Of a DNA stretch of 8,090 nucleotides, positions 1,365-8,090 are shown one piece after another (position 1 is the stretch's first letter; each line of letters begins with the position of its first letter). Below the pieces are notes generated by a model, which searched no databases, was not told the DNA's origin, and saw only the letters and a program-made list of their open reading frames with translations. The stretch comes from an archaeon (GTDB taxonomy: Archaea > Thermoproteota > Bathyarchaeia > TCS64), in the NCBI GenBank assembly GCA_020444005.1, contig JAHLLU010000081.1:1-8090 (forward strand), in the 5' to 3' direction. Made by a program: the position numbers and the translations under genes.

Positions 1365-1372
1365 TATAAATA
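1365..1372 (+). promoter_or_regulatory. TATA box of module 1 (shared in inverted sense with the kinase side)
   Basis: TATAAATA begins 31 bases before the GCAGAA that opens the conserved leader. In module 2 an identical TATAAATA begins 30 bases before the same GCAGAA. This constant distance fits archaeal TATA-to-start spacing and places transcription start at or near G1396. The opposite strand reads TATTTATAG here, so the element could also serve the kinase gene. Confidence 0.7.
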
Positions 1373-1395: not shown

Positions 1396-1457
1396 GCAGA
1401 ATCTAGGTTCTGCTGATGAGGTTGGCGCAATCCGGATCGGGCTCCACCCATCATTTT
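1396..1457 (+). ncRNA. Leader or small RNA 1 with two antisense segments against the tRNA at 1525-1612
   Basis: Begins with a hairpin (GCAGAA 1396-1401 with TTCTGC 1408-1413), followed by TGATGAG (1414-1420) and later CCATCA then TTTT (1454-1457). Between these lie two antisense segments. AGGTTGGCGC (1419-1428) is perfectly complementary to 1550-1559, which is tRNA positions 24-33. CCGGATCGGGCTCCA (1432-1446) is perfectly complementary to 1567-1581, which is positions 41-43 plus most of the variable arm. The anticodon at 34-36 is not covered. The order of the two segments matches the order of their targets, so simultaneous pairing in cis would cross like a pseudoknot. The second copy keeps the frame of the element and changes only the antisense parts, to match its own tRNA. 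The element may be a separate RNA of about 62 nt ending at the T run, or the 5' leader of a longer pre-tRNA. No known RNA family fits it. Confidence 0.72.
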
Positions 1458-1460
1458 CAC

Positions 1461-1524
1461 TCAACTAAGTATATTATTGGTAACAAACTCTCTTTGTATC
1501 CTTAGTTGAATGAAATTAAAAGGC
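1461..1524 (+). promoter_or_regulatory. Conserved spacer with possible internal tRNA promoter, module 1
   Basis: This stretch is closely similar in module 2, including the identical string GGTAACAAACTCTCTTT. It contains a TATA-like GTATATTATT (1469-1478), which could start a separate pre-tRNA transcript near 1497-1500. In this copy TCAACTAAG (1461-1469) and CTTAGTTGA (1501-1509) are perfectly complementary, forming a 9-bp stem; the second copy keeps only about 4 of those pairs, so the stem is less certain than the sequence conservation. Confidence 0.45.
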
Positions 1525-1612
1525 GCACAGGTAGCTTAACTCGGCTATAGCGCCAACCTGAAAAGTTGGAGCCCGATCCGGGTCGTGGGTTCAAATCCCA
1601 CCCTGTGCGCCA
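1525..1612 (+). tRNA. Type II tRNA, anticodon GAA, G73, encoded CCA
   Basis: Cloverleaf: acceptor GCACAGG 1525-1531 with CCTGTGC 1602-1608; T8 A9; D arm 1534-1551 with A14, G18, G19 and A21 present; anticodon stem CCAAC/GTTGG around loop CTGAAAA (1558-1564), anticodon 1560-1562 = GAA; 15-nt variable arm 1570-1584 that folds as CCCG-ATC-CGGG; T arm GTGGG-TTCAAAT-CCCAC 1585-1601; G73 at 1609; CCA 1610-1612. GAA decodes Phe codons, but tRNA-Phe has a short variable loop and A73. The long variable arm suits tRNA-Ser or tRNA-Leu, and G73 suits Ser. Position 15 is A opposite C48, an unusual Levitt pair. The leader bases GGC (1522-1524) are complementary to G73-C74-C75, lengthening the helix to 10 bp in the precursor. 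Amino acid identity is therefore uncertain, and automated tools would probably call it Phe. Confidence 0.85.
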
Positions 1613-1613
1613 C

Positions 1614-1621
1614 TTTTTTTT
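1614..1621 (+). terminator. T8 run after tRNA 1, probably also the TATA region of the hydrolase
   Basis: Eight T residues directly follow the tRNA CCA and would end its transcript. The same stretch, ending TTTTTAC, lies about 28 bases before the hydrolase ATG. That is the position of a TATA box for a leaderless mRNA, and the same arrangement recurs before 3424 and 7195. Confidence 0.55.
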
Positions 1622-1645: not shown

Positions 1646-3091
1646 ATGGACAAACAGTCTACATGGAAATGGATCGATGAAAACCGTGAGGAGTTCATCA
1701 AAGTAAGCGATAAGATATGGGAATACGCTGAGCTGGGACTCGTCGAGACCAAATCATCAAAAATCATAGCCGAGACCCTAGAACGACACGGATTCAAGGT
1801 ACAACTAGGCGTCGCGGGAATGCCAACAGGCATCCTAGCCGAGTACGGTGAAGGCAAACCAGTCATCGGCTTGATGGGTGAATATGATGCGCTTCCCGGG
1901 CTCAGTAATGTAGCTGAGCCAAGAAAAGAACCGATAATCGAAGGAGCACCCGGACATGGATGCGGACACAATATACACGGAACCACAGCGCTAGCAGCCG
2001 CGATAGCAATACGCTACACGATGGAGAAAGAAGGACTTAAGGGCACCATCAAGTTCTACGGGACACCAGCCGAGGAAAACTACGGTGGCAAAGTCTACAT
2101 GGTGACTGCTGGGCTCTTTGACGATGTTGATGCATGTCTCAGTCATCACCCCAGTGAGCTTAACGTGGCTGGAATGAGTAGCAGCACAGCTACAAATGAC
2201 TACAAGTTTGAGTTCTTCGGTAAGACGGCTCACGCTGCCGGTAGCCCTGAGCAGGGAAGAAGCGCCTTGGATGCTGTCGAGTTGATGAATATTGGTGTCA
2301 ACTATCTTCGTGAACACGTGATTCAGGAAGCGCGTATCCACTATGTTATCGAAGAGGGCGGTGGACAACCCAACGTTGTGCCTGATTATGCTCGATCATG
2401 GTATTACATCAGGGCACCTGAGCGTTCACAGCTTAAACCAATCACAGAGCGGATACTGAAGATCGCTGAAGGAGCAGCTATGATGACCGAGACGAGACTC
2501 AACGCTATCCATATGGGTGGACTCTATAACCTGATACCAAACAAGGTGCTTTCTGATGCTATTACGGTTAATATGCGTGAGATAGGTCCACCGAGTTATA
2601 CGGAGGAGGAGCTTGAGTTTGCTAAGGCGATTGATGCCACTGTTTCTCGTGAGGAGAAGATGGGTATGCTTCGTGCTAGTAAGCATCCTGAGTGGGAGCG
2701 GTTTGTTGATGTAATCATGGATACTGAAGTGCATGATCCATGGGATGATGGTATTACTAGTGCGGGAAGCACTGATGTTGCCGATGTAAGCTGGAAGACA
2801 CCAACCCTAGAGTTCCAGACCGCAACCAATGTGCTTGGTACCCCGGGTCACGACTGGCGCTGGGTAGCATGCGGAAGCATGAGCATCGGACACAAGAGCC
2901 TAATATTCGCCGCAAAAACCATGGCGGGAACCGCCCTAGACCTACTTACTTCTCCTGAGATGATCAAAGAAGCCAAGGCTGAGTTGAAGAAGCGTCTCGG
3001 AGACCAGAAGTATGTTCCTGTAAAGCCTGATGACGAGCCTCCGCTGGAGATCGCGAGGGAAAAAGCAGAGCAGTTGAAAGGCAAACAATAA
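1646..3091 (+). CDS. AbgB-like M20-family amidohydrolase, copy 1
   Basis: Cytoplasmic metal-dependent hydrolase of 481 residues with no signal peptide, matching AbgB (p-aminobenzoyl-glutamate hydrolase subunit B) in length and motifs. Visible elements are GEYDALPGL (78-86), GHGCGHNIHG (103-112) with metal ligands C106 and H108, TPAEENYGGK (140-149) with the catalytic/ligand Glu pair 143-144, SHHP (166-169), KTAHAAGSP (193-201) in the lid domain, GSTDVADVSW (374-383) and SIGHKS (413-418) with a C-terminal His ligand. The family hydrolyses amide bonds of N-acyl or N-aroyl amino acids and dipeptides; the substrate here is unknown. ATG 1646 has no ribosome-binding site, suggesting a leaderless mRNA. 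It begins 33 bases after tRNA 1 and is colinear with the copy at 3424. AbgA is not present in the window. Confidence 0.92.
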   Translation: MDKQSTWKWIDENREEFIKVSDKIWEYAELGLVETKSSKIIAETLERHGFKVQLGVAGMPTGILAEYGEGKPVIGLMGEYDALPGLSNVAEPRKEPIIEGAPGHGCGHNIHGTTALAAAIAIRYTMEKEGLKGTIKFYGTPAEENYGGKVYMVTAGLFDDVDACLSHHPSELNVAGMSSSTATNDYKFEFFGKTAHAAGSPEQGRSALDAVELMNIGVNYLREHVIQEARIHYVIEEGGGQPNVVPDYARSWYYIRAPERSQLKPITERILKIAEGAAMMTETRLNAIHMGGLYNLIPNKVLSDAITVNMREIGPPSYTEEELEFAKAIDATVSREEKMGMLRASKHPEWERFVDVIMDTEVHDPWDDGITSAGSTDVADVSWKTPTLEFQTATNVLGTPGHDWRWVACGSMSIGHKSLIFAAKTMAGTALDLLTSPEMIKEAKAELKKRLGDQKYVPVKPDDEPPLEIAREKAEQLKGKQ

Positions 3092-3142: not shown

Positions 3143-3150
3143 TATAAATA
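3143..3150 (+). promoter_or_regulatory. TATA box of module 2
   Basis: TATAAATA within an AT-rich tract, starting 30 bases before the conserved GCAGAA at 3173. It is identical in sequence and near-identical in position to the module 1 box, supporting transcription start at about G3173 and showing that the leader element is transcribed. Confidence 0.72.
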
Positions 3151-3172
3151 ACACAGTTGTATTCGTTTATTT

Positions 3173-3237
3173 GCAGAACTTGTTCTGTTGATGAGGCTGG
3201 CGCATGTCTAACCGGGGAGGGACCAACTCATCATTTT
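3173..3237 (+). ncRNA. Leader or small RNA 2 with two antisense segments against the tRNA at 3305-3391
   Basis: Same architecture as the element at 1396-1457. A hairpin CAGAA/TTCTG (3174-3178 with 3183-3187) is followed by TGATGAG (3189-3195) and CTCATCA (3227-3233), which are perfectly complementary to each other, and then TTTT (3234-3237). AGGCTGGCGC (3194-3203) is complementary to 3329-3338 (tRNA positions 24-33). CCGGGGAGGGACCA (3212-3225) is complementary to 3346-3359 (positions 41-43 plus most of the variable arm). The linker between the segments is 8 bases here against 3 in copy 1. The enclosing stem followed by T4 could end a discrete RNA of about 65 nt. The changes from copy 1 mirror changes in the cognate tRNA, which argues for real base pairing rather than leftover duplication. 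Confidence 0.75.
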
Positions 3238-3240
3238 CAC

Positions 3241-3304
3241 TCAACCATGTATAATCTTGGTAACAAACTCTCTTTCTATCCCCTATTGAATGAAAGTAAA
3301 AGGC
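3241..3304 (+). promoter_or_regulatory. Conserved spacer with possible internal tRNA promoter, module 2
   Basis: Counterpart of 1461-1524, sharing GGTAACAAACTCTCTTT and the TAAAAGGC that leads into the tRNA. GTATAATCTT (3249-3258) is a TATA-like element that could start a pre-tRNA transcript near 3276-3280. Only about 4 bp (TCAA/TTGA) of the stem seen in copy 1 remain. Confidence 0.45.
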
Positions 3305-3391
3305 GCACGAGTCGCCAAGTCAGGTAAGGCGCCAGCCTTAGGGACTGGTCCCTCCCCGGGGGCGTGGGTTCAAATCCCACCTCGTGCGCCA
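3305..3391 (+). tRNA. Type II tRNA, anticodon TAG, G73, encoded CCA
   Basis: Cloverleaf: acceptor GCACGAG 3305-3311 with CTCGTGC 3381-3387; T8; D stem GCC/GGC with A14, G15, G18, G19 and A21 present; anticodon stem CCAGC/ACTGG with a C31-A39 mismatch; loop CTTAGGG, anticodon 3339-3341 = TAG; 15-nt variable arm 3349-3363; T arm identical to tRNA 1 (3364-3380); G73 at 3388; CCA 3389-3391. TAG (UAG) reads Leu CUA/CUG codons and a long variable arm suits Leu, so tRNA-Leu is the default call. G73 is the exception: archaeal tRNA-Leu normally has A73, while G73 is typical of tRNA-Ser. As in tRNA 1, leader GGC (3302-3304) can pair with G73-C74-C75. This is not an amber suppressor, which would need anticodon CTA. 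Confidence 0.87.
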
Positions 3392-3394
3392 CTC

Positions 3395-3400
3395 TTTTTA
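3395..3400 (+). promoter_or_regulatory. T run after tRNA 2, probable TATA element of hydrolase 2
   Basis: TTTTTA starts 29 bases before ATG 3424, the spacing expected for the TATA box of a leaderless archaeal mRNA, and follows the tRNA CCA by three bases. It may both end the tRNA transcript and start the hydrolase transcript, as proposed at 1614-1621. Confidence 0.5.
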
Positions 3401-3423
3401 CGCTCTTCAGCCATTTCTCTGGT

Positions 3424-4875
3424 ATGCTAAAGGATAAGGCATGGAAATGGATTGATGAACACAAGGATGAGTTCGTCGAGGTAGCCGACAAGGTATGGCA
3501 ATACGCTGAGCTCGGGTTGGTCGAGTCAAAATCAAGTAAACTAATCGCAGAGAAACTCAAGGAACATGGGTTTGATGTTAAACACGGTATCGCTGGGATG
3601 CCCACAGCAATAGTAGCCGAGTGGGGCGAGGGAAAACCAGTCATAGGGTTCCAAGGAGAGTACGATGCGCTTCCTGGTCTCAGTAACAAGATCAAACCCG
3701 AGCAAGATCCACTTGTGAAGGATGCGCCGGGTCATGGCTGTGGACATAATATTCACGGAGCCACTGCTTTGGCGGCTGTTATTACCATGAGGTATCTTCT
3801 GGAAGAGGAGGGTATGTCTGGTACTATACGGTTCTTTGGTACTCCGGCGGAGGAGAACTATGCTGGTAAGGTGTGGATGGCGCGTGATGGGTACTATGAT
3901 GGTCTTGATGCGTGTTTGAGTCATCACCCGAGCAGTATGAACACTTGTAACTTGAAGAGTAGCACCGCTGTGAATGGAGTAAAGTTCGTGTACAGGGGTA
4001 AGACGGCGCATGCAGCGGGTAACCCTGAGATGGGTCGTAGTGCTCTTGATGCTATTGAGTTGATGAATATTGGTGTCAACTATCTTCGTGAGCACGTGAT
4101 CCAAGAGGCTCGTATTCACTATGTGATAGAGGAGGGTGGTGGACAGCCAAACGTGGTACCCGATTACGCTCGTTCATGGTATTACATCAGGGCACCTGAG
4201 CGTACTCAGCTTGATCCAATCTATGAGCGGATACTGAAGATCGCGGAGGGTGCAGCTTTGATGACTGAGACAGAGCTTGAGGTTCAGTTTATCGACGCAT
4301 TATACAACATAATTCCCAACAAGACCATCAGCGAGCTAGTGGTCAAGAACATGCGGGAGATCGGAACCCCCGAGTATACAGAGGAAGAGCTTGAGTATGC
4401 TAAGAAAATCGCAAGTAACTTCAGTAAGGATGCTAAGGTGGATTCTCTACGGAGAAATAAGATACCAGACGCTGAGAAGTATCGGGACATTGACCTTGTA
4501 ACTGATATTCTTGATCCCCTGGGTGATGGTGAAACCAGTGCCGGTAGCAGCGACGTTGGCGATATATCCTGGATCACGCCTACAGTTGAGTTTGGCACTA
4601 CTTGTTTTGTGCTTGGTGCTCCGGGTCACAGCTGGGCTGTCGTAGCTACCAGTGGTATGAGCATTGGACACAAGAGTCTGGTGTTTGCCGCTAAGACCAT
4701 GGCGGGTTCAGCTATCGAGTTGTTCACTGATGAAGAACTCAGAGCTAAGGCGAAGGAAGAGCATCTTGAGAGACTAGGAGGTAGAACATACAAGACTCCT
4801 ATACCTGAGGGTGTTGAGGTTCCTTTGGCTGTAGCTGAGGAGACTTGGGAGAAGACTCCTAAACAGTCTCCCTAA
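3424..4875 (+). CDS. AbgB-like M20-family amidohydrolase, copy 2
   Basis: Paralogue of the gene at 1646, 483 residues, colinear without gaps through residue 400. It keeps GEYDALPGL (78-86), GHGCGHNIHG (103-112; C106, H108), TPAEENYAGK (140-149; E143, E144), SHHP (166-169), KTAHAAGNP (193-201), GSSDVGDISW (374-383) and SIGHKS (413-418), so it should be an active metal-dependent amide hydrolase of the AbgB type. Differences gather at residues 86-100, 155-190, 284-300 and 335-365, which may mean a different substrate. The frame stays open upstream to GTG 3364, but that codon is the tRNA T stem; ATG 3424 aligns with the start of copy 1 and is preferred. No ribosome-binding site is visible. It follows tRNA 2 by 32 bases. 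Residues 212-260 are identical in both copies. Confidence 0.92.
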   Translation: MLKDKAWKWIDEHKDEFVEVADKVWQYAELGLVESKSSKLIAEKLKEHGFDVKHGIAGMPTAIVAEWGEGKPVIGFQGEYDALPGLSNKIKPEQDPLVKDAPGHGCGHNIHGATALAAVITMRYLLEEEGMSGTIRFFGTPAEENYAGKVWMARDGYYDGLDACLSHHPSSMNTCNLKSSTAVNGVKFVYRGKTAHAAGNPEMGRSALDAIELMNIGVNYLREHVIQEARIHYVIEEGGGQPNVVPDYARSWYYIRAPERTQLDPIYERILKIAEGAALMTETELEVQFIDALYNIIPNKTISELVVKNMREIGTPEYTEEELEYAKKIASNFSKDAKVDSLRRNKIPDAEKYRDIDLVTDILDPLGDGETSAGSSDVGDISWITPTVEFGTTCFVLGAPGHSWAVVATSGMSIGHKSLVFAAKTMAGSAIELFTDEELRAKAKEEHLERLGGRTYKTPIPEGVEVPLAVAEETWEKTPKQSP

Positions 4876-4897: not shown

Positions 4898-4909
4898 GGG
4901 GGGGGGGGG
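4898..4909 (+). repeat. Homopolymer tract of 12 G
   Basis: Twelve consecutive G residues 22 bases after the hydrolase 2 stop codon, preceded by AAGGA. It is the only such tract in the window, and lengths of such runs are unreliable in most assemblies. Confidence 0.85.
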
Positions 4910-4912
4910 TAG

Positions 4913-4963
4913 CGTGGCTAAGCCACGGTTCAGCTTATTTCAAGTAAAGAAGCCCCAGAACCG
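4913..4963. terminator. Overlapping hairpins in the convergent intergenic region
   Basis: CGTGGC (4913-4918) pairs with GCCACG (4922-4927) around TAA. CGGTTC (4926-4931) pairs with GAACCG (4958-4963), with an inner GCTT/AAGC (4933-4936 with 4950-4953). The two share two bases, so they compete slightly. Sitting between convergent genes, they probably help end or protect transcripts. No good T run follows on the plus strand. Confidence 0.35.
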
Positions 4964-5073: not shown

Positions 5074-5259
5074 TTATTCGTCGTCGGTGTCGTCGTCTTC
5101 GTCCCAATCGTCGTCGTCCCAGTCATCGTCCTCGTCGTCGAGGCAGTAGATGCAGAGCTTTTGATCGGGTTCTCCGCAGTCTGAGCAGAATTTTTCTCCG
5201 CACATCTTGCATTTGGTAACTATCTCGGCTACTTCTCCACATATTGCACATGTTGGCAT
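5074..5259 (-). CDS. Small Cys8 zinc-finger protein with acidic tail
   Basis: Protein of 61 residues, family not recognised. Four CxxC pairs (C4/C7, C17/C20, C25/C28, C36/C39) span the first 39 residues; eight evenly paired cysteines usually bind two zinc ions, as in cross-brace FYVE/RING-like or tandem ribbon folds. Residues 41-61 are almost entirely Asp and Glu with Trp at 47 and 52, giving a strongly negative disordered tail. Such a tail suggests protein binding, mimicry of nucleic acid, or metal binding, but nothing here decides between them. ATG 5259 follows a GGAG about 12 bases upstream. A TATA-like TTATTTTATACC (5320-5309) would start transcription near 5290, within the palindrome at 5286-5298. 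It is on the same strand as the MscS gene but 251 bases from it, so probably separately transcribed. Confidence 0.8.
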   Translation of the reverse strand: MPTCAICGEVAEIVTKCKMCGEKFCSDCGEPDQKLCIYCLDDEDDDWDDDDWDEDDDTDDE

Positions 5260-6587: not shown

Positions 6588-6908
6588 GTGAAAGAAATGG
6601 ACGAATATAACCGAAGAAGACACAAAGACTTCGTAGAATCCCCAGAGGACATCGCCGAGATCCTGGACACAGTATCCGAGAAGGTACCCAAGATGATCAA
6701 AGGAATCATAGGCGCCTTCTTCAGCCCAGACGCGGCCAAAGACATGGCGAAAAGCGTCGCAGAGTTCAGGAACACCCTAATCGAGGGCGGTATCCCTGAG
6801 GACGAAGCCATGAGGATGACTCGTGAATACATGCAGACAGTAACAAACTGGAAAGGCATGGTTAACGAGTTCAAGGTCGGAGAGCACCACAACTACCGGG
6901 ATGAGTAG
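6588..6908 (+). CDS. Unknown small alpha-helical protein
   Basis: Protein of 106 residues, not recognised. It is highly charged and predicted mostly helical, with a hydrophobic stretch KMIKGIIGAFFS (35-46) flanked by charges, better suited to an amphipathic helix than a membrane span. Residues 60-73 fit FRxxLIExGIPxDEA, a motif repeated in the next gene. The start is GTG 6588; ATG 6597, three codons later, is equally possible. No strong ribosome-binding site is visible. The next gene begins 2 bases after its stop, so the two form an operon and their products may work together. The upstream region carries the palindrome cluster, so expression is probably regulated. Confidence 0.75.
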   Translation: MKEMDEYNRRRHKDFVESPEDIAEILDTVSEKVPKMIKGIIGAFFSPDAAKDMAKSVAEFRNTLIEGGIPEDEAMRMTREYMQTVTNWKGMVNEFKVGEHHNYRDE

Positions 6909-6910
6909 CC

Positions 6911-7135
6911 GTGAGCGCCTGGGCATCCCTACGCACATTACCCGCGGTACTTGGGTTGATGGTTAGGGCACCTGGATGGGCACTGGACTATAGCATGAGC
7001 TATAAACGCGCCAAACGGGAGTTTAGAAAGCAGCTCATCGAGCAGGGTATCCCTCACGATGAGGCTAGTGAACTCGCGGAGCTTTTCCCCTTCAAGATGA
7101 GTGACTTCATCGAGACGGTGCGCAGCGTAAACTAG
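6911..7135 (+). CDS. Unknown small protein sharing a motif with the preceding gene
   Basis: Protein of 74 residues, not recognised. Residues 1-28 are hydrophobic to amphipathic (SAWASLRTLPAVLGLMVRAP), which could attach it to the membrane. A basic helix (31-40) leads into FRKQLIEQGIPHDEA (38-52), matching the FRxxLIExGIPxDEA motif of its neighbour, and the C terminus is helical. The start is GTG 6911, two bases after the upstream stop; ATG 6901 is out of frame. The shared motif suggests an ancient duplication or a shared partner-binding helix-turn-helix-like element; no DNA-binding role is implied. Confidence 0.72.
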   Translation: MSAWASLRTLPAVLGLMVRAPGWALDYSMSYKRAKREFRKQLIEQGIPHDEASELAELFPFKMSDFIETVRSVN

Positions 7136-7473: not shown

Positions 7474-8090
7474 TTGTTGAAGTTCATCGGAGAGTTCGTA
7501 CAGGAGATAGACCAGAAGAAGCAAAGCTTTCAGCAGTTATTCGGGTTGGACGATAAACAATCAAAGATAGAAGAGACTCTAAAAGAAGAGCTTGAACACA
7601 ACTGGCACAAGCTACCTGAACCCGGTAACGTATTCACCGAGGAGTGCAGCATCGACAGTAGTAGCGCCTCAAGAACCCTGAGCAACGGAATCGACTTCTT
7701 CATCATCAGAGCCCTCATGCTAGGTACATGCAATTACAATAAACCCAAGCTCAGGTTCGAGATGGTGAAAGGAATCCGAGACTATAACGTGATCACAGGC
7801 TTTGAGCGGATTCTTAGAGACCTTATCGAGATAGAGATCGTTTTGGATAATATTGATGACTTGCCTGAGAACAGCATCGTTTTGATTGATGGGAACCTCT
7901 ATGGGCGGTTCACGCATCTATTGCAGGAGCTTCAACTAGGAGGCTGGTACCATCTACCCCTTGAACTTCTTGACGTCATGCAGAAACTCTTCACAGAGTG
8001 CGAGAAACGAAACATAATGCTCGTGGGCGTCTCCAAGTTCAGCAAGACCAGAGTATTAACTACTGCTTTGCTTAGACCAAGTTACCCGAA
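7474..8090 (+). CDS. nurA: NurA-family nuclease, N-terminal part
   Basis: Cut by the right edge; about 205 residues visible. NurA is the nuclease that works with the HerA hexameric translocase in archaeal end resection. Visible NurA-domain features, numbered from TTG 7477: a helical N terminus, SIDSSSASRTLSNG (58-71) with D60 as expected metal ligand, IVLIDGNLYGR (134-144) with D138, and IMLVGVSKFSKTR (180-192) with K187 matching the family's conserved Lys strand. The family usually has DGS/G in the first motif, where this protein has DSS. No ATG is available; TTG 7474 or 7477 is set by GGAGG upstream, which favours 7477. No herA, mre11 or rad50 lies in this window, so a partner would have to be beyond 8090 or elsewhere. 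Confidence 0.82.
   Translation, partial: MLKFIGEFVQEIDQKKQSFQQLFGLDDKQSKIEETLKEELEHNWHKLPEPGNVFTEECSIDSSSASRTLSNGIDFFIIRALMLGTCNYNKPKLRFEMVKGIRDYNVITGFERILRDLIEIEIVLDNIDDLPENSIVLIDGNLYGRFTHLLQELQLGGWYHLPLELLDVMQKLFTECEKRNIMLVGVSKFSKTRVLTTALLRPSYP

What the first reader, a model, noticed from the sequence alone, without database searches (positions are those of the whole stretch)
1396..1612. Leader RNA carries two antisense segments matching both flanks of its own tRNA's anticodon
Seen directly: 1419-1428 is the exact complement of 1550-1559 (10 nt), and 1432-1446 is the exact complement of 1567-1581 (15 nt). The pairing would cover tRNA positions 24-33 and 41 to the variable arm, leaving 34-40 free. 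The segments are in the same order as their targets, so cis pairing would be a pseudoknot and trans pairing a two-site duplex. Either would block the normal anticodon and variable arms while exposing the anticodon. Possible roles: an RNA antagonist or chaperone of the tRNA, a processing guide, or a switch between tRNA and non-tRNA folds. I know of no described archaeal RNA with this layout.
Basis: partly seen in the sequence, partly recalled or inferred. Interest (0 to 1): 0.93.

Follow-up and report, generated by a model that had tools for sequence, protein, structure and literature searches.

The report
tRNAs with self-antisense leaders
Two neighbouring tRNA genes in this likely archaeal DNA each have, in the predicted leader just upstream, two stretches exactly complementary to that same tRNA's anticodon and variable arms, and the two copies differ in step so that each still matches its own tRNA; the leader would likely clamp its own tRNA in an inactive fold, which would be an unusual way to control a tRNA.

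Summary
A second, diverged unit (3143-4875) has the same layout: TATA box, leader, long-armed tRNA, M20 amidohydrolase. Each leader exactly matches its own tRNA (10+15 and 10+14 bp, same register); exact matches to the other copy's tRNA stop at 7. Five double substitutions and one paired deletion separate the copies and no pair is broken, so pairing is very probably selected. Both tRNAs carry serine-type marks (G73, long variable arm) but Phe (GAA) or Leu (UAG) anticodons. Most likely mechanism (inferred): the leader hairpin clamps the anticodon and variable arms of a potentially miscoding tRNA and holds it inactive, perhaps also gating the downstream gene. A nested rival fold (leader on variable arm and 3' CCA end) is preferred by a pseudoknot-free program for both whole precursors, so the paired state is open. 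Box C/D, H/ACA, T-box and split or permuted tRNA do not fit. Missing: any homologue outside this window (no archaeal genome was reached; the one genome scan went on a short pattern and gave four bacterial hits without tRNAs) and any transcript data.

The parts
1365..1372 (+). TATA box (TATAAATA), copy 1
   Evidence: 31 nt before G1396; no TATA-like site elsewhere in 1300-1652 by the same simple pattern
1396..1521 (+). leader, copy 1 (predicted start G1396)
   Evidence: start inferred from TATA spacing and from the terminal hairpin
1396..1413 (+). 5' terminal hairpin H1 (7 pairs; 6 in copy 2)
1414..1453 (+). hairpin H2 (UGAUG/CAUCA base) that carries both antisense segments
1419..1428 (+). antisense segment A, complement of tRNA positions 24-33
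   Evidence: exact 10 nt
1432..1446 (+). antisense segment B, complement of tRNA 41-43 and the variable arm
   Evidence: exact 15 nt
1454..1521 (+). third leader element H3
   Evidence: 1453-1521 and 3233-3301 agree at 59 of 69 without gaps
1522..1524 (+). GGC at -3 to -1, can pair with G73-C74-C75
   Evidence: sequence
1525..1612 (+). type II tRNA, anticodon GAA, G73 (1609), encoded CCA
1550..1559 (+). target A' (tRNA 24-33)
1567..1581 (+). target B' (tRNA 41-43 and variable arm)
1606..1612 (+). tRNA 3' end, alternative 7-nt target of 1423-1429
1614..1621 (+). T8 tract, possible archaeal terminator
   Evidence: sequence
1646..3091 (+). M20-family amidohydrolase (TIGR01891), 33 nt after the tRNA
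3143..3150 (+). TATA box (TATAAATA), copy 2
   Evidence: 30 nt before G3173
3173..3301 (+). leader, copy 2 (predicted start G3173)
3189..3233 (+). hairpin H2, copy 2
3194..3203 (+). antisense segment A, copy 2
   Evidence: exact 10 nt with 3329-3338 (12 with one G-U)
3212..3225 (+). antisense segment B, copy 2
   Evidence: exact 14 nt with 3346-3359
3302..3304 (+). GGC at -3 to -1, copy 2
3305..3391 (+). type II tRNA, anticodon UAG, G73 (3388), encoded CCA
   Evidence: 51.3 bits
3329..3338 (+). target A', copy 2
3346..3359 (+). target B', copy 2
3395..3399 (+). T5 tract after the tRNA, copy 2
   Evidence: sequence
3424..4875 (+). second M20-family amidohydrolase, 32 nt after the tRNA, 64% identical to the first as protein

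Best explanation
Each of the two tRNA genes carries in its predicted leader two segments that exactly complement its own tRNA's anticodon and variable arms, and these likely pair with that tRNA and would hold it in an inactive fold until the leader is removed or displaced. Shown: the complementarity, its register, its better fit to the own tRNA, and the coordinated differences between the copies. Inferred: that the leader is transcribed with the tRNA from the TATA box upstream; that hairpin H2 opens to form the 10-bp and 14- or 15-bp duplexes while the tRNA is being made, before its acceptor stem closes; that this hides the variable arm (which seryl-tRNA synthetases recognise) and the anticodon arm. 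Both tRNAs have marks of serine acceptors (G73, long variable arm) with Phe or Leu anticodons, so once freed they would be predicted to put serine at Phe or Leu codons; the leader would act as their restraint. The GGC at -3 to -1, able to pair with G73-C74-C75, would slow leader removal. The M20 gene 32-33 nt downstream is probably on the same transcript, so the same fold may also gate it.
For: Own-pair exact runs 10+15 and 10+14 against a longest exact run of 7 for both cross pairs. Five double substitutions (one in A, four in B) and one deletion on both sides, no broken pair among 25 and 24 (read from the strands printed), although the two M20 genes agree at only 998 of 1412 aligned bases and are 64% identical as proteins. 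Same register on both tRNAs (24-33, and from 41). TATA-to-start spacing 31 and 30 nt. Estimated energy of the pseudoknot's parts -99.7 and -89.0 against -81.1 and -73.1 kcal/mol for leader plus cloverleaf, before any pseudoknot penalty. G73 at 1609 and 3388; A73 as archaeal Leu determinant, G73 as bar against archaeal LeuRS, Ser identity independent of anticodon: passages of PMC9976931. Leader pairing with 3' RCCA slows bacterial RNase P: passages of PMC9433436.
Against: Only two paralogues, which share ancestry; no locus outside the window was found. Only one compensatory change supports the A arm, and with G-U pairs segment A of leader 1 also reaches 12 on tRNA 2. The pseudoknot-free fold of both precursors prefers the nested alternative (-90.4 and -85.4), and the consensus fold of the two copies keeps leader hairpins and cloverleaf apart, with no leader-tRNA pair; its alignment puts segment B out of register, so it could hardly show one. 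H3 folds as a long hairpin only in copy 1. tRNA 2 alone does not fold as a full cloverleaf by energy (-50.1 against -47.1 constrained). No transcript, charging or processing data. Serine identity is read from rules of other organisms. Without the genome I cannot say whether these are extra tRNAs or the cell's only ones for their codons.
Confidence: 0.45

Rival explanations
1. Nested switch: the leader segment UGGCGCA (the same as the tRNA's own 5' strand AGGCGCA but for the first base) pairs with the tRNA 3' end UGCGCCA, and segment B pairs with the variable arm, so leader and 5' acceptor strand compete for the 3' end. This would block end processing and charging rather than the anticodon arm.
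For: Minimum-energy fold of both whole precursors without pseudoknots: 6.7 and 9.3 kcal/mol below leader and tRNA folded apart; no topological difficulty; the same in both copies.
Against: Only 7 (copy 1) and 8 (copy 2) Watson-Crick pairs at the 3' end, against 10 and 10 at the anticodon site; does not explain why A changed T to C together with tRNA position 30; the program cannot score the pseudoknot.
Confidence: 0.22
2. The tRNA is a structural element of the amidohydrolase mRNA: leader-tRNA refolding controls termination at the T tract or cleavage by RNase P or Z and so sets M20 expression, perhaps reporting on amino-acid supply.
For: In both copies the tRNA lies 32-33 nt before the M20 start with no TATA-like site between by a simple pattern; the TATA box found lies upstream of the leader.
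Against: The shared layout could be mere inheritance from a tandem duplication; archaeal U-tract termination is not known to need a hairpin (recalled); little leader-M20 pairing (no exact run of 7 or more in copy 1, one of 8 and one of 7 in copy 2, first about 150 nt after the tRNA).
Confidence: 0.13
3. Trans-acting chaperone or guide: RNase P frees the leader as a stable small RNA that opens the anticodon arm of mature tRNA, for folding or modification.
For: The leader has a 5' terminal hairpin and a conserved third element that suggest a stable RNA; pairing leaves 34-40 free in copy 1.
Against: No box C (RUGAUGA) in either leader and no CUGA downstream of the UGAUGA; segment order is wrong for H/ACA; no RNA family but tRNA reaches its gathering score in the window.
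Confidence: 0.1
4. No RNA function: an old inverted repeat kept complementary by template switching during replication, or chance.
For: Such copying can keep inverted repeats alike without selection (recalled); the arms lie only about 130 nt apart.
Against: The two segments are in permuted order relative to their targets, in the same register in both copies, inside a hairpin, with a conserved promoter; chance is made very unlikely by the shuffles.
Confidence: 0.05

Closest known systems
Allo-tRNAs (bacterial; PMC7609411, passages)
   Same: Serine-type tRNAs with long variable arm and mostly non-serine anticodons, some in odd polycistrons
   Different: 8/4 or 9/3 acceptor domain and bacterial; here 7/5, likely archaeal, with an antisense leader (the word leader does not occur in that review)
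nev-tRNAs of nematodes (PMC4300185, abstract and outline)
   Same: Variable-arm tRNAs with anticodons of other amino acids; no mistranslation was detected in the animal
   Different: Charged with leucine, nematode only; the abstract names no leader
Split tRNAs of archaea (PMC4033280, passages)
   Same: Complementary leader sequences anneal next to tRNA parts
   Different: There the leaders join tRNA halves for splicing; here the tRNA is whole and is itself the target
Antisense RNA control and riboswitch-like refolding (recalled)
   Same: Hairpin-to-hairpin pairing, mutually exclusive folds
   Different: The target is a tRNA on the same predicted transcript

Membership tests
Box C/D guide RNA | C box RUGAUGA | tested here: not met
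   UGAUGA at 1414 and 3189, preceded by C and U; no RUGAUGA in either leader
Box C/D guide RNA | D box CUGA downstream of C | tested here: not met
   the only CTGA is at 1413 and overlaps the UGAUGA; none in copy 2
H/ACA guide RNA | 5' guide pairs with the 3' part of the target (reverse order; recalled) | tested here: not met
   segments are in the same order as their targets
T-box riboswitch | match to a T-box family model | tested here: not met
   no T-box hit at E up to 1 in the window
Split or permuted tRNA | tRNA gene broken or reordered | tested here: not met
   RF00005 matches model positions 1-71 without truncation for both tRNAs
Allo-tRNA | long variable arm and G73 with non-serine anticodon | tested here: met
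   G1609, G3388; anticodons GAA, UAG
Allo-tRNA | 8/4 or 9/3 acceptor domain | tested here: not met
   7/5 in both
Allo-tRNA | charged with serine | not testable with these tools
   needs an aminoacylation assay
nev-tRNA | variable-arm tRNA with an anticodon of another class | tested here: inconclusive
   1 of 2: copy 1 has GAA (Phe); copy 2 has UAG, itself a Leu anticodon

The most novel reading that the evidence does not exclude
A self-restrained miscoding tRNA: a serine-charged tRNA with a Phe or Leu anticodon is made together with its own antisense clamp, so that the cell can switch on serine misreading, or the paired amidohydrolase gene, by releasing the clamp.
Probability: 0.25. Interest if true: 0.95.

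Novelty: categorically new. Interest (0 to 1): 0.85.

Why it matters
If right, a tRNA can be controlled by a built-in antisense leader, a layer of control between transcription and charging and a way to keep a code-breaking tRNA in a genome safely. It is directly testable with short transcripts in vitro, and the two leaders give a starting profile for a search of archaeal genomes.

Tried and rejected
Distant blastn: no match in phages with copy 1 and none in plasmids with copy 2; the other two combinations were not run. With hindsight the single genome scan should have used the M20 protein.

Rejected as families: box C/D, H/ACA, T-box, split or permuted tRNA (membership rows). Considered an intron in the variable arm of copy 1; not pursued, since copy 2 has a like arm and both have a 3-bp D stem.

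Not found in print: searches (top rows of listings with the starts of abstracts; one returned no paper) showed no title or abstract start about a tRNA with an antisense leader. The library holds only open-licence PMC papers.

Full report
What is in the sequence. The tRNA at 1525-1612 (anticodon GAA) is preceded by a leader with two segments that exactly complement it: 1419-1428 with 1550-1559, and 1432-1446 with 1567-1581. Positions 34-40 are left free. Chance is very unlikely: in 5000 dinucleotide shuffles of each leader, exact runs of 10 or more came up 24 times and none passed 11.

A second unit. The finding does not mention 3143-4875, which repeats the layout: TATA box, leader, long-armed tRNA (anticodon UAG, 3305-3391), short T tract, M20 amidohydrolase. 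The units have diverged: 998 of 1412 aligned bases of the two M20 genes agree, 64% as protein. The tRNAs with their GGC agree at 64 of 90 aligned positions, the third leader element at 59 of 69. In copy 2 the leader matches its own tRNA in the same register, 10 and 14 bases. Exact matches to the other copy's tRNA stop at 7 in both directions. With G-U pairs allowed, segment A of leader 1 does reach 12 on tRNA 2 (10 exact, 2 G-U), so the copy specificity rests mainly on segment B.

Coordinated change. Read from the paired strands printed: segment A has one double substitution (U-A to C-G at tRNA position 30); segment B has four double substitutions and one position deleted on both sides (the gap can be put at either of two neighbouring columns). 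No pair is broken in either copy. I counted this by eye on two sequences, so it counts events, not independent lineages.

Transcript. TATAAATA at 1365 and 3143 lies 31 and 30 nt before G1396 and G3173, the first bases of a terminal hairpin of 7 and 6 pairs. By the same simple pattern no TATA-like site lies between tRNA and M20. I infer one transcript from leader through tRNA, with possible read-through of the T tract into M20. The 5' end is a prediction.

Which state. Three states compete. Leader and cloverleaf apart: -81.1 and -73.1 kcal/mol. Nested fold, leader UGGCGCA on the tRNA 3' end plus segment B on the variable arm: -90.4 and -85.4 for the whole precursor. Pseudoknot, A and B on anticodon and variable arms with acceptor and T arm kept: parts sum to -99.7 and -89.0 before any pseudoknot penalty. 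These energies ignore tertiary contacts and modification, and the folding program cannot form pseudoknots. The consensus fold of the two copies shows leader hairpins and cloverleaf and no leader-tRNA pair; its alignment has segment B and its target out of register by the paired deletion, so it is a weak test. tRNA 1 alone folds as a cloverleaf; tRNA 2 alone does not quite. The change at position 30 and the longer match favour the pseudoknot; segment A may serve both states. In the pseudoknot the tRNA ends could still mature while anticodon and variable arms are held. As segment A is made before its target and the acceptor 3' strand comes last, capture during transcription is plausible (inference).

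What the tRNAs are. Both have G73, a long variable arm, a 7/5 acceptor domain and an encoded CCA. Review passages (PMC9976931) give A73 as the archaeal leucine determinant, G73 as a bar against an archaeal LeuRS (Haloferax), and serine identity as independent of the anticodon, resting on variable arm and G73 with a weaker G30-C40 pair (present in copy 2, absent in copy 1). So the likely amino acid is serine, against the Phe and Leu anticodons. This is inference from other organisms. It gives a reason for a restraint: a freed tRNA would misread. The GGC just before each tRNA can pair with G73-C74-C75; pairing of that kind slows bacterial RNase P (PMC9433436 passages).

Origin. Of the 120 M20 hits listed (of 7998 scored), 8 name an organism and all 8 say Candidatus Bathyarchaeota, the best at 95% identity. 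The window's genome is not held, so the number of other tRNAs for these codons is unknown.

Verdict. Observation confirmed and extended; selection for leader-tRNA pairing very probable (my estimate 0.85); the restraint mechanism is the best of several (0.45). I found no described system with this layout in the searches made. The main weakness is that all evidence comes from two paralogues in one window.

Noticed in passing
1646-3091 and 3424-4875: M20 residues 201-280 are much more alike between the copies (201 of 240 bases) than the rest, as after gene conversion.
   Followed up: partly
1477-1495 and 3257-3275: A 19-nt block TTGGTAACAAACTCTCTTT in the third leader element is identical in both copies though mostly unpaired in the folds; no complement of 8 or more of it in the window's + strand. 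Possible protein site.
   Followed up: partly
5074-5259, minus strand: Small protein with four CxxC pairs and a very acidic tail.
   Followed up: no
6588-7135: Two neighbouring short ORFs share a GIPxDEA motif; the first has no Pfam or NCBIfam hit, the second was not searched.
   Followed up: no
4898-4927: A run of 12 G next to a short inverted repeat (CGTGGCT A AGCCACG), possibly a terminator or an assembly weak point.
   Followed up: no
7474-8088: NurA-domain protein running off the end of the window.
   Followed up: no
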